The position numbers and the translations under genes were made by a program. A stretch of DNA of 64,000 nt from an uncultured Acidimicrobiales bacterium (GTDB taxonomy: Bacteria; Actinomycetota; Acidimicrobiia; Acidimicrobiales; SZUA-35). The notes beneath the pieces were generated by a model. That model ran no database searches. It worked only from the letters and a program-made list of their open reading frames with translations, and had not been told where the DNA came from. The stretch is taken from contig CAKZXA010000006.1 of the NCBI GenBank assembly GCA_937922045.1, positions 1 to 64,000 on the forward strand, written 5' to 3'. This document shows positions 2,840-38,003 of the stretch, one piece after another (the first letter of the stretch is position 1; each line of letters starts with the position of its first letter).

Positions 2840-3624
2840 CACGACACCTCCCGATCCGGTACTAGGCGCAGATGTGGGCCACGGTCGAAGCGGTCGAGTT
2901 CGCCTGCCAGGTCGGGCAGATCCGTTGGGTCCGGGCTGCGTGACGGCCAACCCGGTTGCGAGGATCGGCCAAGCGCTCGGGCGTAGGACACGACGAGCCG
3001 CCCATAGGAAACCGAGTCATCCGAGTAGTCGACCTCCACGGCAACGCACCGAGGCGTGTTGGCTGCAAGCACCGAGGTCATCTCATCGAGCGCCGAGAAC
3101 GAGCGGCCAGGCGGCGGACCCACCCACCACGACACGATCGGCCACTGCACCGTTGGGAGCCACGACATCTTCGGATGATCCGCAACCGGGCGAAGTAGGG
3201 CTGAAGCGATTGGCTCTTTCGAGGTGCCGACCTCAGCCTGGACACGAGCAGTCTTGGCCGCACCAACCGACCACTGAGAAGGGAACCGGCGACGGAACCG
3301 CCACGCCTCTCGCCATCCAACCAGAGCCATCAGCCACGCCGGCCCCCCACGAACAAGAGCGACCTGGTGAACTGCTTCAACGATGAGCCAAGCAAGAACA
3401 CAGCCGCCGGCAGCAAATCGGAACTCAGCGCCGACGACGAGTGCGACGATGCTCGACCACGCGATGAGCACCTGGACCGGGTTGCCAGCGAGTAGATGCA
3501 GGAGCGACCGGAAGCGGACGGCTTTGCTGGCCAGTCGGGGGAGACGTTCGGCCATGTAGCGCACGATCGGGCGGAGATCCATCAACGCCCGCCACCACCA
3601 TTCGTAGAAAGGGTTCATCTTCAT
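2839..3624 (-). CDS. Membrane partner of the FtsK-like translocase (split Tra N-half)
   Basis: 261-residue protein with hydrophobic segments at about residues 50-68 and 70-90, rich in tryptophan at the N terminus (EWWWRALMDLRP), followed by a soluble domain. In many actinobacterial elements the FtsK-like Tra protein is one chain with N-terminal membrane helices; here the membrane and motor parts appear to be encoded by two overlapping genes, this one first. First gene of the operon: GGAGG lies about 10 bases before the ATG, and the divergent promoter region is at 3625-3757. Function is inferred from context. Confidence 0.6.
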   Translation of the reverse strand: MKMNPFYEWWWRALMDLRPIVRYMAERLPRLASKAVRFRSLLHLLAGNPVQVLIAWSSIVALVVGAEFRFAAGGCVLAWLIVEAVHQVALVRGGPAWLMALVGWREAWRFRRRFPSQWSVGAAKTARVQAEVGTSKEPIASALLRPVADHPKMSWLPTVQWPIVSWWVGPPPGRSFSALDEMTSVLAANTPRCVAVEVDYSDDSVSYGRLVVSYARALGRSSQPGWPSRSPDPTDLPDLAGELDRFDRGPHLRLVPDREVS

Positions 3625-15649: not shown

Positions 15650-15673
15650 CGAGTACGTAGCCCGGCGAAGCCA

Positions 15674-15712
15674 AGGCGTGGGTCACCCGATGTCTCGAGA
15701 TGACCCACGCCT
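15674..15712 (+). terminator. Hairpin terminator after the DUF1996 gene
   Basis: AGGCGTGGGTCA (15674-15685) pairs perfectly with TGACCCACGCCT (15701-15712) across a 15-base loop, 24 bases after the stop codon. No U-run follows, as is common in actinobacteria. Confidence 0.65.
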
Positions 15713-15877
15713 CTTGGAGCGCCCGGAGAGTAACGCAACAAGAAACCAACTCGGGGAAGAAGTTTCAGATTTCTTGGAACCTGCACCTGTGTCGTGGCGT
15801 TGGGGTGATATCGCTGACCACAAAGACCGGTATCTGCGGTGCCTATCTAGTCGTGAACAAAGAGAGAAAGAGGGAAG

Positions 15878-17932: not shown

Positions 17933-18006
17933 CGGCATTCCCCACGCAGGACCGAAGCCCCAACCTGCTCGCACTTTCCACTCACGGCACAAGGACGACG
18001 AATCAT

Positions 18007-19740
18007 ATGATCAACATCATTCAGAACAAGAAGAGAAAGAGGAAGCGCACACTCACTAGGCGAAAGAGGAGGACGGCTGGCGTCGCCTTAGTTCTGGCCG
18101 GGCTGGCAGCCCTACTCGTGCCCGGACCCGCATCGGCGGTCACTGACAATCGGTATGAACTCGTCGTACAAGACGGCCAGTACCGATACGTGGTCGACCA
18201 CACCAACAACGCCAAGGCGTGGGCCGGGCACTGCACTGACCAACAACTCGGCGCCACGCCGACCAGCGTCACCTGGAACGACATCAAAACCCTCGCCCAG
18301 GAATCCACACCCGACTGCACCGAGCTAGAACGTCGACTCGGCACCAACTCAGCAACAAACATCGCCACGACTACAACAACGACAACGGGCAGCACCGGCA
18401 GCGTCGATGGCCGCCCGGTTTGCAGCTCGCAGTCAGCGGACCCCGACGGTGACGGCTGGGGCTGGGAGAACGGACGAACCTGTGTCGCCCCGCCACCTCA
18501 ACCTCCGGCAACCGTCGTTGGCCTGACGGTAAAGGGTGGCGTGCTCGTACGTTGGACCGGCATCCACAACGCCGCCGGGTACAACGTCTACCGAAATGGC
18601 GACTACGTCGCCACCGTCACGGGTGAGACCGAGTATCGCGACCTCGTCGTCCCCGGCGACTACACCTACGAGGTCGCGTCGTTCGGACCCGGCGGCCTTG
18701 TCGAGTCAAAAACTCGGCGCCGCAGTACCGGCAAATCCCTCCCGAGCGCGGTGATCTCGGTCGGTGACTCGTTTATTTCCGGCGACGGTGGACGATGGAT
18801 TGGCAACAAGGACGCCTTTCTCCGTCCCAACGCCTACGAGCCGGACACGTGGACCAACAAGTGTCGTCGAAGCGACGTGGCCCCAATTCGAAGCGCAGCG
18901 ATTCCTGGAGTCAAGACCTTCAACATCGCCTGCTCGGGAGCCGTCGCCGAAGCGATATACGACGTGGAACTGAACGACGAGGGTGAGTTGCCCGATTTCA
19001 AGGGAGAAGGCCCCCAGATCCTTCAGCTGCGCGAGCACGGCGAAACCCATCATCTCGACATGGTGGTGGTTTCCATCGGAGGTAACGACATGGGCTTCAA
19101 CCGCTTGGTCGAGAAGTGCATCAAAGACTACGAGAACCCGTTCCGAGACGAATGCAAGGAGCATCGACAAGCCGAGTTCGAGGGGAACCTCGACTCGAAG
19201 ATGATTCCCGAAGCGCGCAAGGCGATCAAGAGCGTCAAGGCGGAGCTCCACCGGCTTCGACAGCTCGAAGCTCGGGTCGTGCTGGTTTCCTATCCTTCGT
19301 CGGTTCCGTATGAAACCCGGTGGAGCGACCCCTTCACGAAGAATTCCCACGGCTGTCCGTTCCATAGCAAGGATCTGCGCTGGGTGAACGGCGACCTCGT
19401 GCCAAGAATCGACTCCGAGTACGAACAGCTGGCCAAGGAGCTCGATATCGAGTTCGTCTCAATGGACAGCGCCTTTCACGGCAAGGAGGTATGCGGCAAG
19501 CAGGTGACGGCCAACCAGAACACCTCAGACCCAGCTCGCTACGAATGGGTGGTCAACGTTGAGGTCTTCGACGGAGAGGTGCGAAAGTTGGAGAGCATAC
19601 ACCCCAACGCCTTCGGTCAGCAGGCGCTCGGTCGTTGCCTCAACTTGGCATGGCAAAGCCCGTCAGCGCAATATCACAAGTGCTTCAACAACAACGGCAT
19701 GCCTGAAGACATGAGGATGGTGCACCGCACAACCATCTGA
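18007..19740 (+). CDS. Secreted SGNH/GDSL hydrolase with FnIII-like linker
   Basis: 577 residues. Strongly basic signal peptide (hydrophobic about 28-44, cut near ASA). Residues about 46-117 repeat the N-terminal domain of the preceding protein; DPDGDGWGWENGRTC follows after a Thr linker, then one FnIII-like domain (about 163-245) and an SGNH hydrolase: block I GDSF with Ser255, block III GGND at 358-361, and a C-terminal SIHPNAFG with His532 (E529 three residues before, where Asp is usual). Likely lipase or carbohydrate esterase acting outside the cell. AAGGACG lies about 10 bases upstream of the ATG; the frame to 17857 lies inside the upstream gene. Confidence 0.8.
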   Translation: MINIIQNKKRKRKRTLTRRKRRTAGVALVLAGLAALLVPGPASAVTDNRYELVVQDGQYRYVVDHTNNAKAWAGHCTDQQLGATPTSVTWNDIKTLAQESTPDCTELERRLGTNSATNIATTTTTTTGSTGSVDGRPVCSSQSADPDGDGWGWENGRTCVAPPPQPPATVVGLTVKGGVLVRWTGIHNAAGYNVYRNGDYVATVTGETEYRDLVVPGDYTYEVASFGPGGLVESKTRRRSTGKSLPSAVISVGDSFISGDGGRWIGNKDAFLRPNAYEPDTWTNKCRRSDVAPIRSAAIPGVKTFNIACSGAVAEAIYDVELNDEGELPDFKGEGPQILQLREHGETHHLDMVVVSIGGNDMGFNRLVEKCIKDYENPFRDECKEHRQAEFEGNLDSKMIPEARKAIKSVKAELHRLRQLEARVVLVSYPSSVPYETRWSDPFTKNSHGCPFHSKDLRWVNGDLVPRIDSEYEQLAKELDIEFVSMDSAFHGKEVCGKQVTANQNTSDPARYEWVVNVEVFDGEVRKLESIHPNAFGQQALGRCLNLAWQSPSAQYHKCFNNNGMPEDMRMVHRTTI

Positions 19741-24336: not shown

Positions 24337-27300
24337 GTGGGTAGAACAATGGAGTCACTTTCGTCGTCGAGCAGTGGGGACAAGGTCCGCAAATGCGGCC
24401 GGTTGGCCAAGCTCAGCGTCATCGTCGTCGTTGCGGTCGCTGTGCTCGCAACACTCGTATCACCAGCCAGTGCTCGGATAGTTCCTGGCACGCCAACAGG
24501 TGTTGAAGCCGTCTACAACGAGAAGACGGCCAGCTTCACCCTGCTGTGGACGGGCCCACAGCCGACGGCGGCAGGCCCCATCGCCGGCTACGAGGTGATT
24601 CGCGACGGAGAGCCCGTCGGTACCTCTTTCGGCTATCCCTTCTTCTCCGACTCCAGTGATCTCACGGCGGGCAAGACGTACGAATACGAGGTGCGGGCCT
24701 TCAGCGGGCCACGAAACCAGCGCCGTTACGGCGCCGCCACCGAGCCTGTAGCGGTGGCCGCCCGTACTCTTGTCGGCCCACCAGCCCTTGTAGCCCAAGC
24801 CGATTCAACACCGGGTCGGGTTGTTGATGGTCGCTGCATCGGAGGCCGGCGAAACACCGCAGAACTAGCCCAGACCGCCTACAACACTGACTGCAACGAC
24901 ACCTACAACCCCTCAAGCGGCGTGCACCGCTGCGAGTGGATCCCCCCGAATCTCGGTTACGAATGCTCCGGCCCCACCGGCGACGGTGGCGGCGTTACGC
25001 CACCTCCGAACGACCCGGGCACCGATGATCCGGGCACTGATGATCCGCTGCCGCCGGATCCAAATGTCGGAGGTCCGACCGGCAACGGCCCCCTTGTGCC
25101 CCGTGACGTGCGAGCCGTCGCCGTCACCAACGACACCGAGGCAGTCAACCCAGCCGGTATTCGACTGAGCTGGACCCCCGGCGGCGGACCTGAATCTCTT
25201 GGCTTCAATATCAGCCGGGCTGAAGTTGACGGTGCTCCCCGTGAGCATCTGATCTCGATCGTCGGCCGGTCGTGGTTCGTCGACTGCAACGTGGTGAAGG
25301 ACACGACATATCAGTACACCGTCTCGGCCTGGTCCGAGGGATCGGTGTATAGCTTCACGACCCTGCCCGTCGAGGCGAAAGCAACGGTTACCCCTGGGAA
25401 ATGCAGGCCGCTGACGCCACCGGGACCATCTGGCGAGAACGAACCGTCAACCGACCCGCTGTTCACCTCGAACACCCGCAACCTCAACAAAAGGCCGGCC
25501 ACACCAGAACAGGTGAAGATCACCGGTTCTGGCTCATCGGCGCGCCTGCAGTGGGAGATGCCACCGAGCGCCCGAATGGTGTTCCAGATCACTCGCAACG
25601 CTTTGCGAGAGGCCGAGAGCGAGGAGCTTTGGGGCCAGTTCCAAATCACACCCGGCCATCAGGACATGACGTTCAGCAACCGCGGTGATGGCGGTGCCCG
25701 TATGTCGATCCCCGTTGGCAAGTTCTCGCCCGGCGACAACTTTGTGATCCAAGCCTCTCACCCGTGGAGCATCGAAGAAGACGAGCTTGGCCCCGATGCT
25801 AGGTTCTCCAAGCAGTCGCGTTTCGCCACCATCGTCAAGCCCGGTAAAGGCAAGGAGATCCCGAACTTCTACGACTCGTTCGATGCTGACCCCGATACCA
25901 ACCTCAAGCCTGAAGGCTCATGGATCGGCTCGAAGGGCGACTGGAACCCGGTTCCACAGTTCGACGACCAGTTCGATGGATCGGGCAAGCTCGCCGATGC
26001 CAACGACAAGTGGTTCTTCGCTCGCAATGACGGGGAGCGAGAACTAACGCCGTCGTGGAGCCGAGACCAGACTCAGACCGACAAGAACGCGATTCTCAAA
26101 GACGGCAAGCTTGAGATGTCGGCCAAGATCTCCGACGGAAGCTACTCATACTTCGGCTCGGCCAACGACAGCGGCGACGGCTATCTCGTCGATCCAACCA
26201 ACGGTGTTTTTGTCGAAGCTTCGGTCCGACTCGATCACATGTCACCGGCCGACAACGCCTGGTGGGCGTTCTGGTTGATGGCGCCAGGGTCGAGCAACTG
26301 CGACGCCAACGGGAACCCGATCCCAGGTGGGTCGAATGCTTACGACGGCCACGCCGAAACCGGTGTTGAGCTCGACCTGTTCGAGTTCGTGCCCGACCTG
26401 AACAACGGCTACAACCAGGCCTTGTTCCGCTACGAAGGCGGCCAGGGCGATAACTGTGTGAAACCCGATGGGGTAAAGCTGGCCCCTGAGGGCCGGAACT
26501 TCACCTACGAAGGGGTCAACCCACCCCTCGATGTCGACATGCCCGACTACATGGACGGCGACTATCACCGTCTCGGCCTCTACTACGCACAGGACTGTTA
26601 CGTCGTCTACATGGACGACGAGTTGATGTGGAAGGTCACCGAGGAATCCCATCCCGGTTGGATCACCAAACGGGCCAAGGAGTCGATCCGACTCACGTGG
26701 GAGATTCAGAACCAGCGGACAACTGCCAACGGCGATGTCATCAAGAATCCGTGGACGTCGCGGGGCGGCGACTTCTCCAACACGGCGCTCGAGCGCGACC
26801 CGACCGTGTTCATTGACTATGTGAACGTGTGGGAGAAGAAGGAAGCTGCCAACGGGCTGTGCTCCGGTGGCGCCGACCCGGCCCCCGAGCCGGAGCCGGA
26901 ACCGGATCCCGAATTGGAAGCACCGGTAAACGTCGTAGCCGTCCCTGAGGGTGGCACGATTCAACTCAATTGGGAGGCAGGCGAGGGTCTCGCCCCCAGT
27001 GGCTATGACATTCTGCGAGATGAGCAGGTTGGTGAGCAGGCGGAGGAGCTGGTTGGAGAGGACCATGGCTACTGGAGCCTCACCGACGGTGAGACTGAAT
27101 TCCCCGACGAGATTGTCGACGCCGGGCAGACCTATGACTACCAGATTGTTCCGTGGACCGCGGGCGCGAACGGCGCCATAGCGCTTCGTACCTATGGCCC
27201 CAAGTCAGATGTTGTCTCGGCCACCGCTGAAGAGGGCTCACTCGTCAATGGCATGGGGGCACCGACTTCGGCGGTAGCTACCCGTGATGGTGGGGCGATC

Positions 27301-30300
27301 TGGGTCAACTGGACAGCCGGTGAGGGCACGCCTCCCGATGGTTACGACGTCAAACGCAATAGTGATATCCCTTGGAGCGTTGTTGGCGAGAATCGTTTCC
27401 TTGACACGGCGATCACTGATGGTCAGGTGTACACCTACATCGTCACGCCGTGGGTTGAGACCGATGGTGACCCTGCGAACCGGCTCTATGGTGCGGCATC
27501 GGCTGAAACGTCGGCCACGGGTGGTTCGGGTCCGATTCCTGACCTCGAACCGCCGCATGATCCCGATCCGAATGCCGGGCCGAACTACCGCCGGATCTTC
27601 CGTGATGATTTCGAAGGCGCCGACATTTCGTCGAACTTCGCCGTACCGAGCTGGACCGCCCCAAGCCGGGTGACGAAAAACTCGGCCGCCGGTTGCTCAC
27701 AGAAAGACGGCAAGCTTCACCTCGCCATCAAACAGGTCGGCGACGAACAGCTCGCCTGCTACCTGATCTCCAACGCCGGCAACTACGGCCCGGGCATCGA
27801 TTCGACCGTGAAGATTGAGTACCGGGCCAATGTGTCGAACGTCAAGGCGATGGGTGCCTGGTTCGCCGGTTGGGTTTACCCGCTCGGCGACACCTCTGGC
27901 CAGCCGAACGCCGCTGACGGTGTGGTAACCACCGGCAGCGAGTACGACGTGTTCGAATACATGCCGACCCGTCCGGGCGAGTTCCAGACCGCGGTCCACG
28001 ACAGTGATGCGATCAAGATGGAGAAGTGGGTTGATCCCCAGAGTCTGGGTATCGATCTGACCGCAGACGAGTTCCACACGTTTGGTGTTGAGTGGAACAA
28101 GAACTGTGTGGCGTTCTTCATCGACGGCACCAAGGTGTCGAGTAAGAACTCCGATATTTCGGCGGCCAAGAAGCACAGCCTCATGCTGTCGATGGAAGCC
28201 CAAACCGGAACCCAATGGGACACCTGGGACGTTGGCGACTTTGCCGAGAACCTGGCCTCAAACCCGGCTGAAGGCATCATCGACTGGGTCGAGGTCCAGA
28301 AAAAGAAGTCACTCGACCCCGAGCTCTGCGACGGTTCCGACGACCCGGGAACCGATGATCCTGGTACCGACGACCCCGGTACCGATCCACGAGGCCCATC
28401 GGCGGTGAGGGATCTCAAACGGGCCCGTGGCTTGATCAATGTCTTGGCATTGGTCTGGGCTCCACCGGCTGAGCCGGACGGAGTCGTTGACGGCTACGAA
28501 ATCTATCGAGATGGAGAGTTCCACGACCGAAAGGCGAACGAAGCTTTCACCGGCCATCCCGACGGTTACAAGGAGTGGACCGACCACTCACCTAATGGTG
28601 CGACTCGACAACACGTCTACACCATCTATGCCTATACCGAGCTACCGGGCGGCGAGATTATTCTGGGTGAAGAGGCGTCCATCTACACATCCCCGGACAA
28701 CGATGGCGGCTACGGCGATGGGCCCCCGCCCGTCGACTCGTTCTCACTACTGACGAGAGGCCTTGAGGCCGTTGAGACCGGTCGGCTGGTCTTCGAATTC
28801 GTACCACAGTTCGGCGCTAGGGTAACCGGCTACAAGCTCAGAGTAGATGGCAAGCGTTGGAAGGAAACCGGGGCCGGAGAGCCCGAAAGCGACCCCGACG
28901 CCGATCGATCGATCGAGTTCTATTGGTCAAACTCCGGCCCAATACCGGATCCAGGCGAACACGACGTCACGATCTACTCCTTCAACCGGGACGAAAACGG
29001 CAATGATGTGCTTAGTGCCGGACGCACGATTTCGTATTTCGTCGCTGACAACGGGTTCGTCCAGACCTTCGAGAAACCGCTGTTGGCGCCGGTAGAAGAT
29101 CTCGTGGCGACGCAGACTCGCTTCAAGCCTGAGATTGTGTTGAAGTGGCGCCCGCAGGAGTTTGCGGGCTATGCCGCTGGCGACATTACCGAACCTTCTG
29201 GCTACAACGTCGAACGCAACGGCACGTTCTACAAGTCGGTCGTCGGCTCACCGCTCTATGACCCTGACGTCGTTCCTGGTGAGGAGTACTGGTACAAGGT
29301 CACCCCGTACTTCAACCAGAGCTCAGGTGATGCGCTTGCGGGCCCGTCGAACTCGACGTCACCGTTGCTGGTCAAAGAGACACCGACCGTCATCGATCCC
29401 GATGCGCCAACCGATCTCACTGCAATCCAGGTTGATCGCGCTGGACGCAGCGTCGAGCTGACCTGGATCGCGCCCGAAGGCTGGGAGCAAGGCCTCATCA
29501 AGTATTACACGGTCACGCGAAACGGCTTCGTGGTCGCTCAGCTGCCCGAGAACACGTTCGACGACTTCGAGACGACCGCCTACAGGACATTCACCGACTC
29601 GCAAGCGTCGGCGGGTGTGACGACCAGCTATTCGGTGGTCGCGTACAGCACCGAAGGTTCCGATTCCGAGGGAGCCAGGTCGGAGCCGGTGATTATCACC
29701 CCAACGAGGCTCTCCGATGAAGAGGACCCTGGTAGCGAACCCAGCACAGAGGAAATTCCTGGTCGGTACGTACGAGCCGTAGAGATTGTCTTTGGTGTTT
29801 CGGGCTCCGAAGCCAGCCGTCTTGGAGCAGAGTTCTACACCCTGCACCAGTACGTCGACCGGGGCGTCTCAACCCTCGACTACTCAAGACTGCTGCAATC
29901 GTTCAATTTCTCGGCGATCGGGTCCGGCTATGACACGGGCCTTACCCCCGGGGAGGCAGCACTCGCCAGAATAAGTGACGGGGAAGATCTGCTTACCAGG
30001 ATTGCAACCCAGTCCGGCGGGCCAAACGGCCACCTGTTGGGCATCATTCCAGAACTGTACAGCCCCCCCGGATACGACGGCCTCCAATACTTGGGCAATT
30101 GGGCCGGAGACCGAGGTCTAGAGCCTAAAGAACAGAAGGAAGGAATTGAAAAGCACCTCGAGTTGCTCCGGAAGCGGTTGGACGAGGTCGACGACGGCGT
30201 AGACAGCAAGTTGCAATGGAAACATGTTCGGTTCGAAGCGACCGAAGTTGTCTGGCACACGCTGAACTTCACGAACGCCTACCAAGATCACACCCATGAT

Positions 30301-33300
30301 GCCTGGTATCGAGGGGTCCGTAGCGGGCTCATGCCGAACCACCCCATATACGAAACTGGCTCGGTCGCTGCGGGACTTTTCTACCAAGCCACAGAGCAAG
30401 AGCGGGTCGAGTTCTATGAGGTAGATCAGTTCGCCTGGCAGTTCGTACAGCCGTACATCGACATTCAGTTGATGGCTCAGGACACTCTCGACGACAAGAG
30501 GCGGCAAGCACTCAGGAAGTATGTCGCTGGCGCCATAACCCTTATCGCAACGGTCGCCACGTTTGGCAAGGCAATCACGCTGAAGTCAGCATTCTTCACG
30601 GCGTTCGCCGGCTTTGCCTCCACGCTTGCGCTCACTAGCGACCTAAGGGAGGCAGGGAAAGCCTTCGTTCAGTCACTGGTTACCAGCGGCCTCGCGTCGT
30701 TTGGGGAAGGTACTGCGCTGACAGAGAAGTTGGGCGGATGGGATGTCGTTGCCTATAGCAGTCTCAGAGCAATCGACAAATACCTGAAAACCGGCAAATG
30801 GGAGGATGCAGCAATAGCCTTTACTGACGCCGTACTAGAAAAATACGGCCAAAACTACTTCGACGCCGATCTGTGGACCAAGATCCAGCCGTTTGTCGAG
30901 ATCAGTATGGACATCCTCTGGCAGGCGATCCTCACCGGTGGTGTCGATTGGGATCAAGCCCAGGATCAGTACCTGAACGGGCTGTTTAGCCTGATGGGCC
31001 AGGAATTCGGCGAGTTCGTGGCCGACAGCCTCCCGCAGAGTTGGGGAGGATTCCGCGGCCCTATTGCCGACCTTGCCCAGACCGCAGTTGTGACAGGCGG
31101 CGACAAAGCGAAGATCCGCCAACACTTCGACCAAAAGACGCTGCCGGCGATGGCCAACCTGATCGGATCCAACATCACCGACAGGATCGGTAAGGACAAG
31201 TTGCTGGGCCAGATCACCGGCCCCCTGGTCGAGTTGGGCCTCAACTACGCCAACCCTGAATTCAGCAACGCCGAGGCCACGAGGATGTTCGAAGAGGTCA
31301 TCCACGGCATCGTTGGCAAGTACGTGGAGGACGAGTTGAAGTTCGGCTTGCGCGGACTCAACACGAGCGGTAACCAGAACATCAACGTAGTGATCGATAA
31401 GGCCGCCGAACTGGCCGGTGTCTACATCACCTACTCCTACGACTCGAGCCTCCGCGACGAAAAGGTGCTCGAATTTGGGACCGACACGATCGTCGAAGTT
31501 CTACTCGGCGTGATGCCTAACTGCGTCGCCGACAGCCCGGCAGTACAGACAATCACAGGCGAGCTGGTAGCCGCGGCCACCACCGGCGGCGGTATCGAAG
31601 ACGAAGATCTGGTTTCGTTGGCCGAGTCCGGGGTATGGGCGGGCAAGGAAATCGCCGAGAACTGCGGAGGATCAGACGACGACGTCCCGGGTGACGCGTC
31701 GAAATTTACTCAGTGGGTCCTCGACCTCGCCCCAGGCGAGATCAGTTTCACCAACGTCGGTGAAGATCGCGTCTTGGTCGTGCCAGCGGAGTACTCGAAC
31801 AATCGCCTCACGCTCAGCTCGGAACGAAGCGTCATCAATAGTGAAACAGCCATCGCTGAGATCTTCAGCCGAGAGACCAGCGGTGAAGCGTGGGGCAACG
31901 TGGCCGCCACGGTGGTTGCGAAATATGGGAGCAGTACTGACGACACCGTGGTCGATTTCTTGCCAGACTCCGTCTGCCCTCAACCCGAGACTTCGGCTCA
32001 GGTCACGGCCTCGTCCGGAGCATCTACTGCCGGCAGGTCTGGCAACGTCTTTGGTGGCAGCGGCGTCGGTTTGCTGCTCCCTACCCCCACGCTCGCTTCG
32101 GCTCCGCTGTTGCAAATCAACGAGTGCCCGCTCTACCCCGACACCGCCAAGGGGTTCCGAGACCTGCTTATCAATACACAGAGGTTGGATATTGCGAGCG
32201 AGCTCAACGTAGAGATAGGCAATCTTGCCTCCGGTGCAAAGCACTGGATTGTGACAACGAAACAAGGACACCAACGGTTCCGGCTGATTGCGCCCTACCA
32301 GAACACTGGCGAGATTCAGGGAAAGATTCAGACGATTGAGTTCAGCAGCGGCAACTGGAACAACGTGCGGCAGGCGCCTCCGGTGGTGGTCTTTGCCGAG
32401 AACAACCAGCTCGTGGACTTCAAAGAATCCGCTACCGGCAAGCTGGATGCAGAGCTCCTCATAGGTATGGAGCCGTCTGAGATCGATGCCCTCGTCAAGA
32501 CCCCCGACAATGTTAATGGTGTGGTGTTCGAGAGCTATTCCCTTGCAGGCCAGCCCGACATTCGAGTTCGTATCACTGACGACCTCGGTGTGTTGGAGAC
32601 ACGGAGCCGTAGCATGCCGAATCGTTGGCTTTCGGCCAACGGCTTCGTAGAGGTAGAACGTAGCGGCAACACCATTGTCAATTTCAAAGCGGTTGATGAT
32701 GGCCGGGCAGATCTCATGATCGACGCCCTTTTCAAACTCGCTGCGTCGCTCTTGACTGTTCCGACGAGTAGCGAGGAACTTTTCTTAGTAACTCAACAGT
32801 TCAAGGGTTGCGCTTCAGCGTTCGGTGACACGATCGCCGGGCTTTGGAACCTTCTCAGAGACGTCTTTAAGGATATTCCTGGAGCCATTGAGCGACTCAA
32901 GATTGTGGTTCCTGAACTCTTAGCCGTCTTTGCGGCCAACCCTGATGGGTTCATCGAAGAGGTCCTCGTGAACTTCCTCAATGTGGACGAACTGGCAGCG
33001 GCACGTGCAGCTGACAGTCCCGCAGCCGAAGCAGTCTGGCAAGGAAGACTTCGATGCGAGGTAGCTATCTCCCTCGCTGCTACTGGTCGTACCCCCCGGG
33101 TGTTCAAACCCGGCACTCACGAAGACTTTGTTCGGAAGGCTGAGAACGGTGAGTTCGACCAGTACAAGACGCCACGCGTCGGCTGCAACAGCTTTCCCAC
33201 GGGAACGTTGGTTCGTATGGCCGACGGTTCGCTCCGCCCAATCGATGCTATTCGTCCCGGTGATCGGGTGCTCGCCGCAAACGAGGTAACCGGGAAGTGG

Positions 33301-34140
33301 TCGCCACGGGCTGTCATTGATCAGTGGTCTCACAACGACACCGGTCGGATGGCGACGGTTACCTTAACTGACGGAAGCCACGTTTCGGCAACCGACCATC
33401 ATCTGTTCTGGGTGACCAACGATGGAGCCTGGGTCGAACTCGAAGACGTTCAACCTGGCGACTATCTGCTCACCCCAGACGGGATCACTGAAGTTGCCTC
33501 GGTCGATCTAAGCGACAACCAAGAAACTCTCGTTTGGGAACTCGATGTGGCCACCGACGACACCTTCGCCGTCTACACCGGCACCAGCGACGTACTCGTG
33601 CACAATGCGAAGTGTCCGATTACCCAGGAAGAGATCGACGTCATCACGGAAAACTTCCCGCCGGCGAGGGTTGGGGTTGTCGACGTCTCTAACGCTCCCA
33701 AGTTCCTCGGGAAAGACAAACCACCCGAGTCCAAAGACAGCAACGGAAACTGGGTTGGTGGCTGGCGGGAAGCGCCAAACCCCGAGAACTGGGTTGGCGA
33801 GATCTACATAATTGAGGGCAAAGGATACGCCTACGAAATCAACGGCTACGTCGTGCTCTACAACCTGGACGGCTACCCGGACTTCACGCCGTATGCCATC
33901 GCTTCTGTTGACATCGGACCGTTCACCGGCTCGAGGAAAGGAGACTTCAAAGCCGCCAACGGGAAGATCGAGCGAAAAGACTTCGGTAACGAAGCACCGC
34001 AGGGATTCACCTGGCATCACGTTGAGGCAAAACATATCGAGGGCACACCGATGACCGATGGCGGCGGCCTCATGGAGTTGGTCGACGAGAAAGCCCATGA
34101 CCTCTTCAAGCATTCCGGTGGTTTCTCCACCACCAAATAG
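24337..34140 (+). CDS. Giant secreted polymorphic toxin: FnIII, two GH16, HINT, WHH nuclease
   Basis: 3,267 residues from a GTG (GAGGA 9 bases upstream). Order: signal peptide to about 46; FnIII-like domain; four-Cys module about 160-215; Asp/Pro/Thr linker; FnIII-like domains; GH16 about 510-838 with ELDLFE (E678, D680, E683); FnIII pair; GH16 about 1085-1325 with EYDVFE (E1202, D1204, E1207); four FnIII-like domains; about 1,100 mostly helical residues with an Ala/Gly-rich hydrophobic hairpin; HINT (pretoxin) domain from C2950 to VHN at 3088-3090; and a C-terminal domain with WHH at 3226-3228 and HSGG, the WHH-type HNH/endonuclease VII fold. Inference: the GH16 parts bind or cut glycans of a target wall, HINT releases the DNase tip. 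No RHS repeats. Confidence 0.85.
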   Translation: MGRTMESLSSSSSGDKVRKCGRLAKLSVIVVVAVAVLATLVSPASARIVPGTPTGVEAVYNEKTASFTLLWTGPQPTAAGPIAGYEVIRDGEPVGTSFGYPFFSDSSDLTAGKTYEYEVRAFSGPRNQRRYGAATEPVAVAARTLVGPPALVAQADSTPGRVVDGRCIGGRRNTAELAQTAYNTDCNDTYNPSSGVHRCEWIPPNLGYECSGPTGDGGGVTPPPNDPGTDDPGTDDPLPPDPNVGGPTGNGPLVPRDVRAVAVTNDTEAVNPAGIRLSWTPGGGPESLGFNISRAEVDGAPREHLISIVGRSWFVDCNVVKDTTYQYTVSAWSEGSVYSFTTLPVEAKATVTPGKCRPLTPPGPSGENEPSTDPLFTSNTRNLNKRPATPEQVKITGSGSSARLQWEMPPSARMVFQITRNALREAESEELWGQFQITPGHQDMTFSNRGDGGARMSIPVGKFSPGDNFVIQASHPWSIEEDELGPDARFSKQSRFATIVKPGKGKEIPNFYDSFDADPDTNLKPEGSWIGSKGDWNPVPQFDDQFDGSGKLADANDKWFFARNDGERELTPSWSRDQTQTDKNAILKDGKLEMSAKISDGSYSYFGSANDSGDGYLVDPTNGVFVEASVRLDHMSPADNAWWAFWLMAPGSSNCDANGNPIPGGSNAYDGHAETGVELDLFEFVPDLNNGYNQALFRYEGGQGDNCVKPDGVKLAPEGRNFTYEGVNPPLDVDMPDYMDGDYHRLGLYYAQDCYVVYMDDELMWKVTEESHPGWITKRAKESIRLTWEIQNQRTTANGDVIKNPWTSRGGDFSNTALERDPTVFIDYVNVWEKKEAANGLCSGGADPAPEPEPEPDPELEAPVNVVAVPEGGTIQLNWEAGEGLAPSGYDILRDEQVGEQAEELVGEDHGYWSLTDGETEFPDEIVDAGQTYDYQIVPWTAGANGAIALRTYGPKSDVVSATAEEGSLVNGMGAPTSAVATRDGGAIWVNWTAGEGTPPDGYDVKRNSDIPWSVVGENRFLDTAITDGQVYTYIVTPWVETDGDPANRLYGAASAETSATGGSGPIPDLEPPHDPDPNAGPNYRRIFRDDFEGADISSNFAVPSWTAPSRVTKNSAAGCSQKDGKLHLAIKQVGDEQLACYLISNAGNYGPGIDSTVKIEYRANVSNVKAMGAWFAGWVYPLGDTSGQPNAADGVVTTGSEYDVFEYMPTRPGEFQTAVHDSDAIKMEKWVDPQSLGIDLTADEFHTFGVEWNKNCVAFFIDGTKVSSKNSDISAAKKHSLMLSMEAQTGTQWDTWDVGDFAENLASNPAEGIIDWVEVQKKKSLDPELCDGSDDPGTDDPGTDDPGTDPRGPSAVRDLKRARGLINVLALVWAPPAEPDGVVDGYEIYRDGEFHDRKANEAFTGHPDGYKEWTDHSPNGATRQHVYTIYAYTELPGGEIILGEEASIYTSPDNDGGYGDGPPPVDSFSLLTRGLEAVETGRLVFEFVPQFGARVTGYKLRVDGKRWKETGAGEPESDPDADRSIEFYWSNSGPIPDPGEHDVTIYSFNRDENGNDVLSAGRTISYFVADNGFVQTFEKPLLAPVEDLVATQTRFKPEIVLKWRPQEFAGYAAGDITEPSGYNVERNGTFYKSVVGSPLYDPDVVPGEEYWYKVTPYFNQSSGDALAGPSNSTSPLLVKETPTVIDPDAPTDLTAIQVDRAGRSVELTWIAPEGWEQGLIKYYTVTRNGFVVAQLPENTFDDFETTAYRTFTDSQASAGVTTSYSVVAYSTEGSDSEGARSEPVIITPTRLSDEEDPGSEPSTEEIPGRYVRAVEIVFGVSGSEASRLGAEFYTLHQYVDRGVSTLDYSRLLQSFNFSAIGSGYDTGLTPGEAALARISDGEDLLTRIATQSGGPNGHLLGIIPELYSPPGYDGLQYLGNWAGDRGLEPKEQKEGIEKHLELLRKRLDEVDDGVDSKLQWKHVRFEATEVVWHTLNFTNAYQDHTHDAWYRGVRSGLMPNHPIYETGSVAAGLFYQATEQERVEFYEVDQFAWQFVQPYIDIQLMAQDTLDDKRRQALRKYVAGAITLIATVATFGKAITLKSAFFTAFAGFASTLALTSDLREAGKAFVQSLVTSGLASFGEGTALTEKLGGWDVVAYSSLRAIDKYLKTGKWEDAAIAFTDAVLEKYGQNYFDADLWTKIQPFVEISMDILWQAILTGGVDWDQAQDQYLNGLFSLMGQEFGEFVADSLPQSWGGFRGPIADLAQTAVVTGGDKAKIRQHFDQKTLPAMANLIGSNITDRIGKDKLLGQITGPLVELGLNYANPEFSNAEATRMFEEVIHGIVGKYVEDELKFGLRGLNTSGNQNINVVIDKAAELAGVYITYSYDSSLRDEKVLEFGTDTIVEVLLGVMPNCVADSPAVQTITGELVAAATTGGGIEDEDLVSLAESGVWAGKEIAENCGGSDDDVPGDASKFTQWVLDLAPGEISFTNVGEDRVLVVPAEYSNNRLTLSSERSVINSETAIAEIFSRETSGEAWGNVAATVVAKYGSSTDDTVVDFLPDSVCPQPETSAQVTASSGASTAGRSGNVFGGSGVGLLLPTPTLASAPLLQINECPLYPDTAKGFRDLLINTQRLDIASELNVEIGNLASGAKHWIVTTKQGHQRFRLIAPYQNTGEIQGKIQTIEFSSGNWNNVRQAPPVVVFAENNQLVDFKESATGKLDAELLIGMEPSEIDALVKTPDNVNGVVFESYSLAGQPDIRVRITDDLGVLETRSRSMPNRWLSANGFVEVERSGNTIVNFKAVDDGRADLMIDALFKLAASLLTVPTSSEELFLVTQQFKGCASAFGDTIAGLWNLLRDVFKDIPGAIERLKIVVPELLAVFAANPDGFIEEVLVNFLNVDELAAARAADSPAAEAVWQGRLRCEVAISLAATGRTPRVFKPGTHEDFVRKAENGEFDQYKTPRVGCNSFPTGTLVRMADGSLRPIDAIRPGDRVLAANEVTGKWSPRAVIDQWSHNDTGRMATVTLTDGSHVSATDHHLFWVTNDGAWVELEDVQPGDYLLTPDGITEVASVDLSDNQETLVWELDVATDDTFAVYTGTSDVLVHNAKCPITQEEIDVITENFPPARVGVVDVSNAPKFLGKDKPPESKDSNGNWVGGWREAPNPENWVGEIYIIEGKGYAYEINGYVVLYNLDGYPDFTPYAIASVDIGPFTGSRKGDFKAANGKIERKDFGNEAPQGFTWHHVEAKHIEGTPMTDGGGLMELVDEKAHDLFKHSGGFSTTK

Positions 34141-34566
34141 TCTGCAGCCGCCCTGAGTCTCTATCAACGGGGCGCCCTGGAGGAAGGGCGCACAACACTG
34201 GCCCTACGCGGCGTCGGACGCACATCTGAGGGATGCGTCCAACGCCGCAATCGATACCCGGTCGACCGACCCGACGACGTTGATGGCCAACCGCAACGCC
34301 GGTCTCGTCCACATTGTGAGCACCTCCAGCCCTCGAACAGATCCACCCTCGGCTGACCGAGCGTCCGAGTTTGAGCTGCTGAGCGCTTTGGCCGGGGGTC
34401 TTCCGAGCCCGTTCGCGAATGGCTCTGCTCTCTGAGGGTCCGGTCGTGTCGCCGAGGACCGCCTCGCTCAGCCATGTCCGTGCGACTGCCGTGCGACCCT
34501 CGTGCGGCCAGCGGAATAGTGTTCGACCCCTGTAGTGCTCTAACACATACAACGAAGGATATGAAA
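34141..34566. other. Gap after the toxin; no immunity gene found
   Basis: 426 bases. A hairpin sits at 34172-34191. Minus-strand frames here lack family features and read like the complement of GC-rich intergenic DNA. An immunity gene would be expected in this position; none is evident. Confidence 0.45.
34172..34191 (+). terminator. Hairpin after the toxin gene
   Basis: GCGCCCT (34172-34178) and AGGGCGC (34185-34191) form a perfect 7-bp stem with a 6-base loop, about 30 bases after the stop codon. Confidence 0.5.
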
Positions 34567-34989
34567 ATGAATAAGCTCAGAAAGTTCCTACTAGTTGCTG
34601 TGGCCTTGACCATGACATTGGTGACTGGGCCAGGATTATTGGCACCAGCCGATGCCGCCGACAATCCCCTCATCAAGGTATCGATTCCGCTCGTTAGTGC
34701 CGAGAAGGCCGGCGTTACTGGCGGTGATGTTTCGATCCACATCCACGATTGGAACAACAGAGATGTCTATCGATTCAACATCTACCGAGGAAGCAAATAC
34801 ATCGGAACCGCCACTCCAGGTCCGAATGGGCATCCCAATCCGAACAGCGTTTTCCGGACAGCGAAGTTTGTAGATACCGATGGAGTCGCGAGTAGCCAGA
34901 CCGTTTACAAGGTCCAAGCGGTTCGCCTCGACCCCTCTTCCCCGGATGGCCGGGAATGGGGGCCCTTCACCTACCGAAAGGTTGGTTAG
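34567..34989 (+). CDS. Small secreted beta-sandwich (FnIII-like) protein
   Basis: 140 residues: signal peptide (hydrophobic about 8-24, cut near ADA) then a single domain whose strands (VYRFNIYRGSKYIGTA and TVYKVQAVRLD) resemble the FnIII-like units of the preceding toxin. GAAGG lies 8 bases before the ATG at 34567; the ATG two codons earlier (34561) is too close to it. Its exported nature argues against a cytoplasmic immunity role, though a periplasmic or surface one cannot be excluded. Confidence 0.65.
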   Translation: MNKLRKFLLVAVALTMTLVTGPGLLAPADAADNPLIKVSIPLVSAEKAGVTGGDVSIHIHDWNNRDVYRFNIYRGSKYIGTATPGPNGHPNPNSVFRTAKFVDTDGVASSQTVYKVQAVRLDPSSPDGREWGPFTYRKVG

Positions 34990-35142: not shown

Positions 35143-36792
35143 ATGAAGAAGTATTTGATCATCTTGTTGAGTGTGACTCTTTGGGCGACCGCACTCTTTA
35201 CGCCATCTTCGGCGAGCGCCCAAACCTCTTTTTCGACGGACTGTCGAGACCTTGGGTCCTTCCTTGTTGGCTGCGAAAGTTCGGGCGGGCGTTGGTCGTC
35301 TGCTTTCATCGAATACGCCGAGGCGAACGGGATCGCGCCCAACACGAGGGTTGGAGCACGCGTCCAATTCTTCCCTCAAGGAAACCGGCCGCTCGAAGAA
35401 GTGATGTACATCATCGGTCCGTACCTCCCCGCCGAGGATGCGGGAACCGATTCGGAAACCATCGTCGACGAGCGGGAGCTCTTGGCCAACTGGGATCCAG
35501 ACGACCTAGTGCCAGCGATGAATGACGTGCGCGTTCGCCTCCGCGATCTCGATGTGTCGATTGTCTACATCGGCTTTGGTCACGTTGATGACTCCCAGCA
35601 GCCGGTAGCGCAGCGAGTCGTAGCCACCAAAAGAGCCATTCGAGAGTTCGAAAAACAGCGCCGAGTTGCTCTTGGCCACAGAGGACATGCGACGGCGTTG
35701 ACCGGGCTAAGTCTCGGTGGAGTTGTCGGCAAGATAGCGCTCACCGAGCTCGAAAGCGAAGGTTTCGATCATGGGGTCGAGACCTACGTCTCGTTCGACG
35801 CACCGCACTGGGGGGCTTACACGCCCATAGGGCTTCAGACGACGCCGTTGTACCTAGCTAGCTCCTTCCGGTGGATCGAACGGAACTTGAGCTGGGCCGA
35901 GAGAATAGGTTCAGGCCAGATCGATCAGGCCCGGGACGGGGCGATGCGGGCCGCCAACCTGACTGTCCGCAATCCAGTCGCCCAGGATGTTTTGATGCTC
36001 AACGTCGCCTACGAAGGCTGGAAAGCCCCGAACGCCGACTACATCCGAAACCGTAAGAGCCGGTTGCCCAAGGCGACGAAACGCAATGTTGCGATCGCCA
36101 GCGGTGCTATCGATGGCACCAGACCTCAGCTGGGAGAATTCTACTTCGATCTCGACACTGGTCGTGCGGTGCCACAAAGAGCTCAGGCCCGCCTACATCT
36201 CGAAGCGAAGGTGCCGACCCTTGCGAACCGAGCTACCTTCTGGGGCCACCTGAGCCACGCCGGCCTCTTTGACAGACCGAAGAGCGAATGGGGACCGCAG
36301 AACGCGCCAGCAGCTTGGGTTGACATCGAAACTGGGTCATGCGCTCACATGACAACTCTTGTCGATGGTCCCATTGCAAAGGCCAACGTCGAGCTCCCAA
36401 AGATATGGAGAAACTACAGAGCTGCCGCGCTTGAGAATAGGGCATGTTTCGTACCAACGTTTAGCGCTATTGCCGGCTTCCGCAATCAGCTCGACTCTTC
36501 GCCCTTCGACGTCGTAATCGGCGATAGCGAGAACAAGCAGCATCTAACGGTGTCCCCCCAGATGCGCAACGAGCTCCTGAGCGAACTCGATCGTGTCTTT
36601 CGCACAGCTCCAACGTCAACGCCAACTTCGACGCCGCCCCCACCGACGACCAGGAAGTGTGAGTTCTCGTCAGGCACACACAACCTGGCCGATACTCGGG
36701 CGATGTTCCCAGACAAGTGTGGCACCGCATGGAACGACCAACGCCACAAATGCGACTACGACAGCAACGGCTGGCACTGCCGAGATATCTAA
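35143..36792 (+). CDS. Secreted alpha/beta hydrolase with C-terminal cysteine module
   Basis: 549 residues. Signal peptide about 4-26. An alpha/beta-hydrolase domain: strand TALTGLSLGG carries the Gly-x-Ser-x-Gly nucleophile elbow (about 188-194), FDAPHWG the following acid-region turn, and GHLSHAGLF or SCAHMTT candidate His positions. After a Thr/Pro linker (TSTPTSTPPPPTT) comes a 45-residue four-Cys module that resembles one in the giant toxin. Probably an extracellular esterase or lipase. AAGGAA precedes the ATG by 5 bases. Confidence 0.7.
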   Translation: MKKYLIILLSVTLWATALFTPSSASAQTSFSTDCRDLGSFLVGCESSGGRWSSAFIEYAEANGIAPNTRVGARVQFFPQGNRPLEEVMYIIGPYLPAEDAGTDSETIVDERELLANWDPDDLVPAMNDVRVRLRDLDVSIVYIGFGHVDDSQQPVAQRVVATKRAIREFEKQRRVALGHRGHATALTGLSLGGVVGKIALTELESEGFDHGVETYVSFDAPHWGAYTPIGLQTTPLYLASSFRWIERNLSWAERIGSGQIDQARDGAMRAANLTVRNPVAQDVLMLNVAYEGWKAPNADYIRNRKSRLPKATKRNVAIASGAIDGTRPQLGEFYFDLDTGRAVPQRAQARLHLEAKVPTLANRATFWGHLSHAGLFDRPKSEWGPQNAPAAWVDIETGSCAHMTTLVDGPIAKANVELPKIWRNYRAAALENRACFVPTFSAIAGFRNQLDSSPFDVVIGDSENKQHLTVSPQMRNELLSELDRVFRTAPTSTPTSTPPPPTTRKCEFSSGTHNLADTRAMFPDKCGTAWNDQRHKCDYDSNGWHCRDI

Positions 36793-36878
36793 GGGCCTGA
36801 GAAGTGATGAAACGGCTACTGAACTCAACGACAAGCGCACTCTGGCATCGGTCGGAGGCACTGACGAAAGGCAATCTG

Positions 36879-38003
36879 ATGAAACGAGTCTCTACCGAAG
36901 TGGCGGACAAGCCAGGAGGCGATGCCTCACGGGACCGCCCGCCGAGACTTTGGAATCGACTCCGATCGACCGCCATCGTCACCTGTCTCGCATTTGCTGC
37001 GACCACCTTTACATACGCCTCAGCCACTGAGGCGGCGGCGCTCGAACCGTCGTTGCCATCAGACACAGCAGCGTTGGCTGACTCCGGTGGAGGCGACCTC
37101 GAAGAAGATGAGATTCTTCGTCAAAAAGCCGTAGACCATGTGGTCAAGGCGTTCGAGTCTTACGGCAAAACCAACGGCACCTACCTCGTCGAGGGCGCTG
37201 GCCGATGGGGTGGCACTGGCGGCGACGGCTGGGTCTTCTACGAAACAGGGCCAAGCCGCTATCCCAGTCCCTACCCGACCTCGATCGCCAGCGTGCTGAT
37301 CGATGAGGGCCATTTCACCGACGGTGTGTTTTATGACCCGCTATGGCGGAGCAAGACCTGGACGTTCGGGGACATGCAGGCGTATCGGTGCGAAGATCGA
37401 GTTGGGGTATTCACGGTGCACGGTGACGGTAAGGCAGCGGCCGAGGACCGAGCGTGGTGGGTAGACAACAACTGCACCCAGTACCCCGCCGACAAGCTCG
37501 ACCTCGGCTATTTCAAGCTCTCCTACCCAATCCCTAGGCTTCCCGATCCGCCGTTGCCTCGAGACCCTGAAGACCTTCGAATCATGGCGGTGTGGGAGAT
37601 GCTCGAGGCGCTCGAATCCTATGGCGACGCCAACGGCACATACCTTGTTGACGGCAGCGGATTCCGCGGCCGAGGCTCCGGATGGGCCTTCTATGAAAAA
37701 GCAGGCAGCAACTACCCGGCCTCGATCGCCAACGCGTTGATCGAAACCGGCCACCTGCCAGCCGATGCACGGCATGATCCGCTGTGGGAAAACCCGCTGT
37801 CAATCGCCGGTGATGTGCTGGTCTACCGATGCCAGGACCGAGTGGCTGTGTTCACCCGCGAAGGCATCAGCAAGCCCTCAACCGAAGACAGCGACTGGTG
37901 GGCGGACAACGGCTGCACCCGCTATCCGATCGACAGGCTCAACACCACCTACTTCAAGCTCTCCAGTCCTGTCGATGAGGCGCAAACGAACGACGCAGGC
38001 TAG
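36879..38003 (+). CDS. Secreted protein with an internal tandem duplication
   Basis: 374 residues from the ATG at 36879 (AAAGG 8 bases upstream); an ATG at 36804 adds 25 residues. Hydrophobic export segment about 28-46. Two copies of a domain of about 120 residues follow, each with SYG-x-NGTYLV, GWxFYE, YPxSIAxxLI, DPLW, YRC-x-DRV-x-VFT, WW-x-DN-x-CT-x-YP and YFKLS. The blocks recall the C-terminal beta domain of type II pseudopilins, but no N-terminal prepilin motif is present, so that likeness may be only a shared fold. No family recognised. Ends at a strong terminator shared with the convergent gene. Confidence 0.65.
   Translation: MKRVSTEVADKPGGDASRDRPPRLWNRLRSTAIVTCLAFAATTFTYASATEAAALEPSLPSDTAALADSGGGDLEEDEILRQKAVDHVVKAFESYGKTNGTYLVEGAGRWGGTGGDGWVFYETGPSRYPSPYPTSIASVLIDEGHFTDGVFYDPLWRSKTWTFGDMQAYRCEDRVGVFTVHGDGKAAAEDRAWWVDNNCTQYPADKLDLGYFKLSYPIPRLPDPPLPRDPEDLRIMAVWEMLEALESYGDANGTYLVDGSGFRGRGSGWAFYEKAGSNYPASIANALIETGHLPADARHDPLWENPLSIAGDVLVYRCQDRVAVFTREGISKPSTEDSDWWADNGCTRYPIDRLNTTYFKLSSPVDEAQTNDAG

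What the first reader, a model, noticed from the sequence alone, without database searches (positions are those of the whole stretch)
24337..34140. GH16-armed polymorphic toxin ending in HINT and WHH nuclease
A 3.3-kilo-residue exported protein combines two GH16 domains with intact ExDxxE motifs, about ten FnIII-like units, a HINT release domain and a WHH DNase tip. Wall- or glucan-degrading domains fused to a releasable DNase, without RHS repeats, would be an unusual delivery strategy.
Basis: partly seen in the sequence, partly recalled or inferred. Interest (0 to 1): 0.7.

Follow-up and report, generated by a model that had tools for sequence, protein, structure and literature searches.

The report
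Sugar-cutting secreted toxin with DNase tip
A very large, probably secreted protein from an uncultured Acidimicrobiales bacterium carries two sugar-chain-cutting domains at the front and a self-releasing DNA-cutting tip at the back, apparently without the usual antidote gene beside it.

Summary
ORF 24337-34140 (3267 aa, GTG) has an export signal by eye, seven clear FnIII units, two GH16 domains (ELDLFE 678, EYDVFE 1202), a PT-HINT domain and a WHH DNase tip (WHH 3226-3228); Pfam reports no RHS repeats. GH16 #1 is missed by Pfam but recovered with a profile of this genome's GH16s. The tip matches Rhs-family toxin tips.

(1) Between FnIII and HINT lies a rare, predicted all-alpha body with ~52-residue repeats, found in 3 of 397 genomes of the order. 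(2) Two relatives (contig C12; a genome of another family) share this body and a ~70% identical HINT but carry different tips and no detected GH16: the variable-tip hallmark of polymorphic toxins, with GH16 as an add-on. (3) None of these three has an immunity-like ORF directly downstream, whereas 24 of 28 other HINT genes of the order do (controls 29-31%; post hoc test).

Best reading: an exported polymorphic-toxin-like weapon. Its head engages or cuts a glycan, HINT frees the DNase, and the target is probably not close kin. GH16 was found in 1 of 82 HINT frames. A new variant of a known kind; no activity is shown.

The parts
24337..34140 (+). Whole ORF, 3267 aa, GTG start with GAGGAA 8 nt upstream
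24337..24477 (+). N-terminal basic region plus hydrophobic segment ending in A-S-A: Sec-type signal peptide (by eye, no predictor run)
   Evidence: relatives C12 and G079 begin alike by eye
24520..24735 (+). FnIII unit 1 (res 62-133)
24814..24972 (+). Cys-rich stretch (Cys 167, 186, 199, 210) resembling, by eye, the tail of the protein at 35143-36792
25144..25344 (+). FnIII unit 2 (res 270-336)
26053..26838 (+). GH16 domain 1 (res 573-834), motif ELDLFE 678-683 (nt 26368-26385)
   Evidence: no Pfam hit
26932..27201 (+). FnIII unit 3 (res 866-955)
27274..27492 (+). FnIII unit 4 (res 980-1052)
27622..28305 (+). GH16 domain 2 (res 1096-1323), motif EYDVFE 1202-1207 (nt 27940-27957)
28444..28641 (+). 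FnIII unit 5 (res 1370-1435)
29110..29325 (+). FnIII unit 6 (res 1592-1663)
29425..29664 (+). FnIII unit 7 (res 1697-1776)
29704..31638 (+). Rare body, predicted all-alpha, shared with C12, G079 and three G007 proteins (res 1790-2434)
30628..31638 (+). Degenerate ~52-residue repeats inside the body (res 2098-2434, about six units)
32722..33183 (+). Pre-HINT linker, conserved in C12 and G079
33190..33606 (+). HINT domain, Ser2952 as likely first nucleophile, T3019-H3022 (TxxH), H3089-N3090 end
33607..34137 (+). Releasable tip, WHH/HNH-type nuclease (res 3091-3267; WHH 3226-3228 at nt 34012-34020)
34561..34989 (+). Next plausible gene on the same strand: small exported (by eye) FnIII-like protein, not an evident immunity protein

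Best explanation
An exported, polymorphic-toxin-like weapon of an uncultured Acidimicrobiales bacterium. Steps inferred from the sequence: (1) Sec exports the protein, which stays at the cell surface, in the matrix or free. (2) The FnIII/GH16 head binds a beta-linked glycan and probably cuts it, bringing the protein to or through a glycan coat. (3) The alpha-helical repeat body carries the C-terminus, and its Gly-rich hydrophobic helices may help to cross a membrane (weakest step). (4) HINT cuts after Asn3090 by asparagine cyclisation, and residue +1 is Ala, so cleavage rather than splicing is expected. (5) The freed 177-residue WHH tip cuts DNA in the target. Shown by sequence: the domain anatomy, the conserved HINT and GH16 motifs, different tips on a common body, and the lack of an adjacent immunity-like ORF. 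Not shown: export, cleavage, either enzyme activity, entry, or the target. The lack of immunity suggests a target other than close kin.
For: Domain hits over curated cut-offs. HINT columns S, T..H and H-N are invariant in all 14 aligned HINT domains, the window's and 13 others. The tip matches Rhs-family chains 8bd1, 8h8a and 8h8b (E 2.6e-4, 8e-4, 0.007); a review names RhsP a WHH nuclease effector (PMC12724144, passages), and that 8h8a/8h8b are RhsP is recalled. Common body and HINT with different tips: C12 (71% HINT identity) and G079 (70%). The tip was found in 1 of 198 relative genomes, its own, so it looks like an imported cassette. Other proteins of the same window share head modules (FnIII, CBM_10-like), so the head seems built from this genome's secreted glycan-handling kit. 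A Tox-AHH/Imm11 pair occurs in a relative (L097) with a 51% identical HINT, which ties this HINT lineage to classical toxins with immunity.
Against: No immunity-like ORF directly downstream in the three body-bearing toxins and no SMI1/KNR4 (SUKH-1) match at E<=0.1 in the genome, which is 96.87% complete; most classical systems have an immunity gene there. Three body-bearing relatives in G007 have no detected HINT or tip, so the body may serve something other than toxin delivery. No delivery route is visible. No enzyme activity was tested. GH16 #1 is too divergent for Pfam. One of the four solved-structure hits of the tip, 6xi1 (a flagellin-hook protein, E 0.0012 over 42 residues), is not a nuclease and probably chance.
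Confidence: 0.58

Rival explanations
1. A toxin aimed at eukaryotes (fungi, algae, protists) sharing the habitat: the GH16 pair digests wall beta-glucan and the HINT-released DNase kills, so no kin immunity is needed.
For: No adjacent immunity-like ORF in 3 of 3 body-bearing toxins. GH16 #2 finds beta-glucanases and laminarinases among its sequence relatives with solved structures, with carrageenases further down. Both GH16 copies keep the catalytic motif.
Against: A HINT relative of the order carries AHH/Imm11, as in antibacterial systems. The two closest body-bearing toxins have no detected GH16. Nothing shows a eukaryotic target.
Confidence: 0.2
2. A secreted scavenger or matrix-remodelling enzyme: GH16 cuts exopolysaccharide and the released nuclease cuts extracellular DNA; not a weapon.
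For: Head modules shared with other proteins of the window (a GDSL esterase with CBM_10-like and FnIII parts). No immunity-like ORF. Body-bearing proteins without a detected tip exist.
Against: The tip differs between relatives and sits behind a self-cleaving HINT, which suits conflict better than housekeeping. The tip belongs to a toxin family and resembles Rhs tips.
Confidence: 0.15
3. A classical kin-discrimination toxin whose immunity gene lies elsewhere or belongs to an unknown family.
For: HINT and tip architecture as in classical systems. Unknown immunity families are likely here: of 9 adjacent candidate ORFs of relatives, 5 gave no Pfam hit at E<=0.5, 2 only hits below the curated cut-off (SMI1_KNR4, HEAT_2), and 2 hits over it (Cys_rich_CPCC, Imm11).
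Against: In C12 the neighbouring gene is convergent and its 3' end abuts the toxin's stop, leaving no room; in G079 the next same-strand ORF is 138 nt away and looks like an oxygenase (that name by eye).
Confidence: 0.07

Closest known systems
Sec-dependent ('T2SS') polymorphic toxins with HINT and Tox-WHH (Zhang et al. 2012, PMC3482391; passages seen)
   Same: Export signal, long stalk, HINT just before a swappable C-terminal WHH tip
   Different: GH16 pair in the head (the passages seen list LysM, laminin-G, RicinB and similar adhesion domains), a rare repeat body in place of RHS/FilH/ALF, no downstream immunity-like ORF
Streptomyces umbrella toxins (UmbC; PMC11062931 and PMC13274773, passages seen)
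   Same: Actinobacterial exported polymorphic toxins; the best solved-structure sequence match of this HINT is chain 8w20_A, an entry code counted once in PMC11062931 (that passage was not shown, and the paper says the UmbC1 C-terminal domains were not resolved); alpha-helical repeats; glycan recognition decides the target
   Different: ALF repeats not detected here; UmbC uses separate lectin partners and a TAT signal; here GH16 is in the same chain
RhsP (VP1517), a T6SS2 effector of Vibrio parahaemolyticus (review PMC12724144, passages seen)
   Same: WHH nuclease tip; RhsP undergoes autoproteolysis; the tip here aligns with Rhs tips over the D-F-T-P-Y to WHH stretch
   Different: RHS domain and T6SS delivery; here no RHS, and HINT in place of the RHS self-cleavage
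Bacterial teneurin-like proteins (PMC13018210, passages seen)
   Same: Large proteins, many with predicted Sec signals, with polymorphic C-terminal toxins, surface-anchoring N-termini and no obvious delivery machinery
   Different: They have a YD shell and a further gene immediately downstream of almost all; here neither

Membership tests
Polymorphic toxin system | N-terminal trafficking signal | tested here: met
   Signal peptide by inspection only; no predictor was run
Polymorphic toxin system | Constant body with variable C-terminal toxin | tested here: met
   Body and HINT shared with C12 and G079, tips unlike each other
Polymorphic toxin system | Releasing peptidase before the toxin domain | tested here: met
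   PT-HINT over cut-off, catalytic columns conserved; cleavage itself not tested
Polymorphic toxin system | Cognate immunity gene directly 3' of the toxin | tested here: not met
   0 of 3 body-bearing toxins versus 53 of 79 others (24 of 28 in the order); controls 326 of 1062 and 544 of 1900. Hence 'works like', not filed as a classical toxin-immunity pair
Tox-WHH (PF14414) | WHH plus downstream His and H-x-G pattern, score over cut-off | tested here: met
   43.2 bits against cut-off 25.1; motif
GH16 (domain 2) | Pfam score over cut-off and E-x-D-x-x-E | tested here: met
   30.6 and 36.9 bits against 22; EYDVFE
GH16 (domain 1) | Pfam score over cut-off | tested here: not met
   No hit at E<=0.1
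GH16 (domain 1) | Homology to GH16, catalytic motif and fold | tested here: met
   Foldseek top hits GH16 but on a pLDDT 38 model; no GH16 among solved structures by sequence
GH16 (both domains) | Glycosidase activity | not testable with these tools
   Needs an assay
RHS/teneurin toxins | RHS/YD repeats | tested here: not met
   None reported; positive controls
Umbrella toxin (UmbC) | ALF repeats | tested here: not met
   No Pfam hit in the body at E<=0.1
Umbrella toxin (UmbC) | UmbA and UmbB partners | not tested
   No search made

The most novel reading that the evidence does not exclude
A two-stage enzymatic weapon: a pair of active GH16 glucanases breaches a beta-glucan coat or wall (fungal, algal or bacterial exopolysaccharide), a new type of alpha-repeat body carries the tip across, and HINT frees a DNase. 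It would be directed at non-kin and so freed of the toxin-immunity rule, on a body family that also exists without toxins as a surface or matrix protein.
Probability: 0.2. Interest if true: 0.78.

Novelty: new variant of a known kind. Interest (0 to 1): 0.52.

Why it matters
How large exported toxins without an injector pass a target's polysaccharide layer is an open question, and a toxin that carries its own glycosidase pair would make it directly testable. The body-bearing group also departs from the usual rule that a polymorphic toxin gene is followed by its immunity gene, which points to targets other than kin or to latency as self-protection.

Tried and rejected
Loose immunity test: an ORF of at least 70 aa starting -30 to +100 nt from the stop was found for 71 of 82 HINT genes, but also for 442 of 636 control frames and 647 of 950 random positions. 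It does not discriminate and was replaced by a stricter one (-20 to +15 nt, ATG/GTG, at least 80 aa). The stricter criterion was chosen after seeing the first. With n = 3 the Fisher p is 0.041 against all 79 others and 0.008 against the 28 of the order. The 82 frames are what is left of 92 with a HINT match of 90 residues or more, after 10 were dropped as duplicates, open at the 3' end or with under 450 nt of 3' room.

Body fold: AlphaFold on six rows gave pLDDT 53, all helices. Foldseek gave no hit at E<=0.001, so no fold is claimed. GH16 #1 model: pLDDT 38; its Foldseek hits are only supportive. GH16 #1 found no GH16 among solved structures by sequence.

First GH16 profile used three wrongly oriented stretches; it was rebuilt, with 7 of 7 recovered on leave-one-out.

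ALF repeats: considered because of the helical repeats; no Pfam hit. Downstream 171-aa ORF as an immunity gene: no Pfam hit at E<=0.5, exported by eye and weakly FnIII-like (i-E 0.0055), 334-421 nt away; rejected. Cys2950 as the HINT nucleophile: that position varies among relatives while the Ser two residues on is invariant; rejected in favour of Ser2952. Plasmid origin: no blastn match for 24337-30300 in the plasmid collection.

Named close relatives of the body by pattern scan: none confirmed of 15 stretches. A second scan with the HINT alignment gave 65 loci, the first 12 from Acidimicrobiales MAGs and the rest mostly Streptomyces, Kitasatospora and other actinomycetes.

Full report
Observation. 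The ORF at 24337-34140 encodes 3267 residues without a break in contig C6 (70.7 kb) of a 4.88 Mb, 96.9% complete genome. The order is inferred: a genome of the same family, G027, has contigs of 98483 and 14681 bases, the lengths of two records titled Acidimicrobiales bacterium MAG-125, and the 12 closest named HINT loci are Acidimicrobiales MAGs. Pfam places fn3, GH16, PT-HINT and WHH over their cut-offs. When the pieces are searched alone, the tip also passes Colicin-DNase and GH16 #2 rises to 36.9 bits. GH16 #1 is below Pfam's sight. It is recovered by similarity to #2 (E 3e-11) and by a profile built from six other GH16 stretches of the genome plus #2 (best domain E 3.8e-6 with Z=1000); that profile recovers 7 of 7 of its own members when each is left out. 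The motifs ELDLFE and EYDVFE align to each other and are the only E.D..E hexamers in the protein.

FnIII units.

HINT. Across 14 aligned domains, the window's included, the invariant columns include Ser (position 3 of the alignment), T..H, and the final H-N. By comparison with inteins (recalled), these are the first nucleophile, the block B TxxH and the C-terminal His-Asn. The position of Cys2950 varies, so the nucleophile is taken to be Ser2952. Residue +1 is Ala. The best solved-structure sequence match is 8w20_A (E 6.5e-19); that entry code is counted once in PMC11062931, the umbrella-toxin paper (passage not shown).

Tip. Sequence search against solved structures gives four hits: 8bd1, 8h8a and 8h8b, all named Rhs-family proteins (E 2.6e-4, 8e-4, 0.007), and 6xi1, a flagellin-hook protein (E 0.0012 over 42 residues), probably chance. 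A review of V. parahaemolyticus T6SS states that RhsP (VP1517) has a WHH nuclease motif responsible for DNA-targeting activity (PMC12724144, passages); that 8h8a and 8h8b are RhsP is recalled. The tip was found in 1 of 198 relative genomes, its own.

Relatives and the body. The genome has four PT-HINT matches. The one on C12 (1525 aa) shares the body (24-26% identity) and the pre-HINT and HINT part (44% over 315 positions; HINT alone 71%) but has a different tip, weakly like non-specific endonucleases below the Pfam cut-off. A protein of another family of the order (G079, 2910-residue frame) has ten FnIII units, the same body, 70% identical HINT, and a third, unassigned tip. Neither has a detected GH16. 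The body profile rings in 3 of 397 genomes of the order, 1 of 395 in a different draw from the class and 2 of 39 of the family: six copies in all. Three of them (G007) have CBM_10-like motifs and the body but neither HINT nor tip detected; one of these three frames stops at position 540 of the 641-position body model, so it may be cut short. Profile self-alignment shows repeats offset by about 52 residues (off-diagonal E 2.1e-6); the best of 25 column shuffles reached 0.45. The predicted structure is all helix at low confidence, with no match in the PDB at E<=0.001.

GH16 and HINT together. Among 82 distinct HINT frames with a closed 3' end, the GH16 profile found clear GH16 in one, the window's. 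One other HINT frame, the RHS protein L099, gave a weak 46-residue match (8.4 bits, E 0.086) that I do not count. Twelve of the 82 frames begin at a locus edge, so their heads were not fully seen. In 39 genomes of the family, the 874-aa GH16 part matched strongly only itself; 6 other genomes gave partial matches of at most 24.3 bits. No paper in the library holds both 'polymorphic toxin' and 'GH16'. A broader search was swamped by glucanase papers, and none of the 15 listed of 7,690 holds 'polymorphic toxin'. None of the 8 papers listed of 176 joins Acidimicrobiia and polymorphic toxins. Zhang et al. 2012 was read by passages only: adhesion domains in heads are described, GH16 was not met.

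Immunity. Zhang et al. call the toxin-then-immunity gene order the one pervasive feature across most gene neighbourhoods. With a strict adjacency test, 53 of 79 HINT genes without the body have a candidate ORF, 24 of 28 in the order, against 326 of 1062 control frames and 544 of 1900 random positions; the body-bearing genes have 0 of 3 (Fisher p 0.041; 0.008 within the order). The looser first test did not discriminate, so this is a post hoc result on three cases. In the window the next sizeable same-strand ORF begins 334 nt on (its likely ATG 421 nt on) and is an exported FnIII-like protein by eye; a 51-aa ORF at +140 was not pursued. In C12 the 3' end of a convergent gene abuts the stop. In G079 the next same-strand ORF is 138 nt away. 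No SMI1/KNR4 (SUKH-1) match was found in the genome at E<=0.1; other immunity families were not searched genome-wide. Relatives do carry recognisable immunity: AHH tip with Imm11 at L097, both over cut-off, a pairing listed by Zhang et al..

Setting. Other proteins of the window reuse the same modules. The ORF at 17857-19740 has a CBM_10-like motif, an FnIII unit and a GDSL esterase, and the ORF at 15878-17932 ends in a CBM_10-like motif. The toxin's head therefore looks like the secreted glycan-handling kit of this organism with a toxin tail added. GC falls from 0.635 in the head to 0.563 in the tip, which is compatible with an imported tail but weak.

Judgement. The protein works like a Sec-exported polymorphic toxin, made by tip exchange on a rare repeat body, but it fails the immunity-gene test, so it is not filed as a classical toxin-immunity pair. 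GH16 is an optional head module, seen in this one protein; whether it breaches a glycan layer, merely binds, or is unrelated to killing is open. A new variant of a known kind, of moderate to good interest.

Noticed in passing
L056 (2244-7454 and 7714-13089, minus) and L057 (3019-6012): Three G007 proteins with the same rare body and CBM_10-like heads but no HINT or toxin tip detected: the body seems to exist apart from toxins.
   Followed up: partly
L064 (4387-4827 and 6042-6680, minus); L095 (3174-3488): Short HINT or HINT-plus-tip fragments that could be orphan toxin cassettes; in L064 one is cut by the contig end and the other is interrupted by a stop codon.
   Followed up: no
L097:3643-5392 (minus): HINT with an AHH nuclease tip followed by an Imm11 gene: a textbook toxin-immunity pair in a genome of the same order.
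   Followed up: partly
L006:4585-6702: Paralogue in the same genome with a HINT and a DUF4160 domain as its tip (23.7 bits against a cut-off of 23), an unusual toxin tip.
   Followed up: no
window 13916-19740: Run of proteins with DUF1996, a CBM_10-like tail, and a GDSL esterase with CBM_10-like and FnIII parts.
   Followed up: partly
window 35143-36792: Protein with a signal-like N-terminus and a GLSLGG lipase-like motif (both by eye) and a four-Cys tail resembling residues 160-212 of the toxin; no Pfam hit.
   Followed up: no
window 36804-38003: Protein with two similar halves and a hydrophobic N-terminal segment (by eye); no Pfam hit.
   Followed up: no
A1 against A3: HINT domains are about 70% identical between proteins whose bodies are only about 24% identical, suggesting that HINT plus tip travel as a unit or that HINT is homogenised by recombination.
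   Followed up: no
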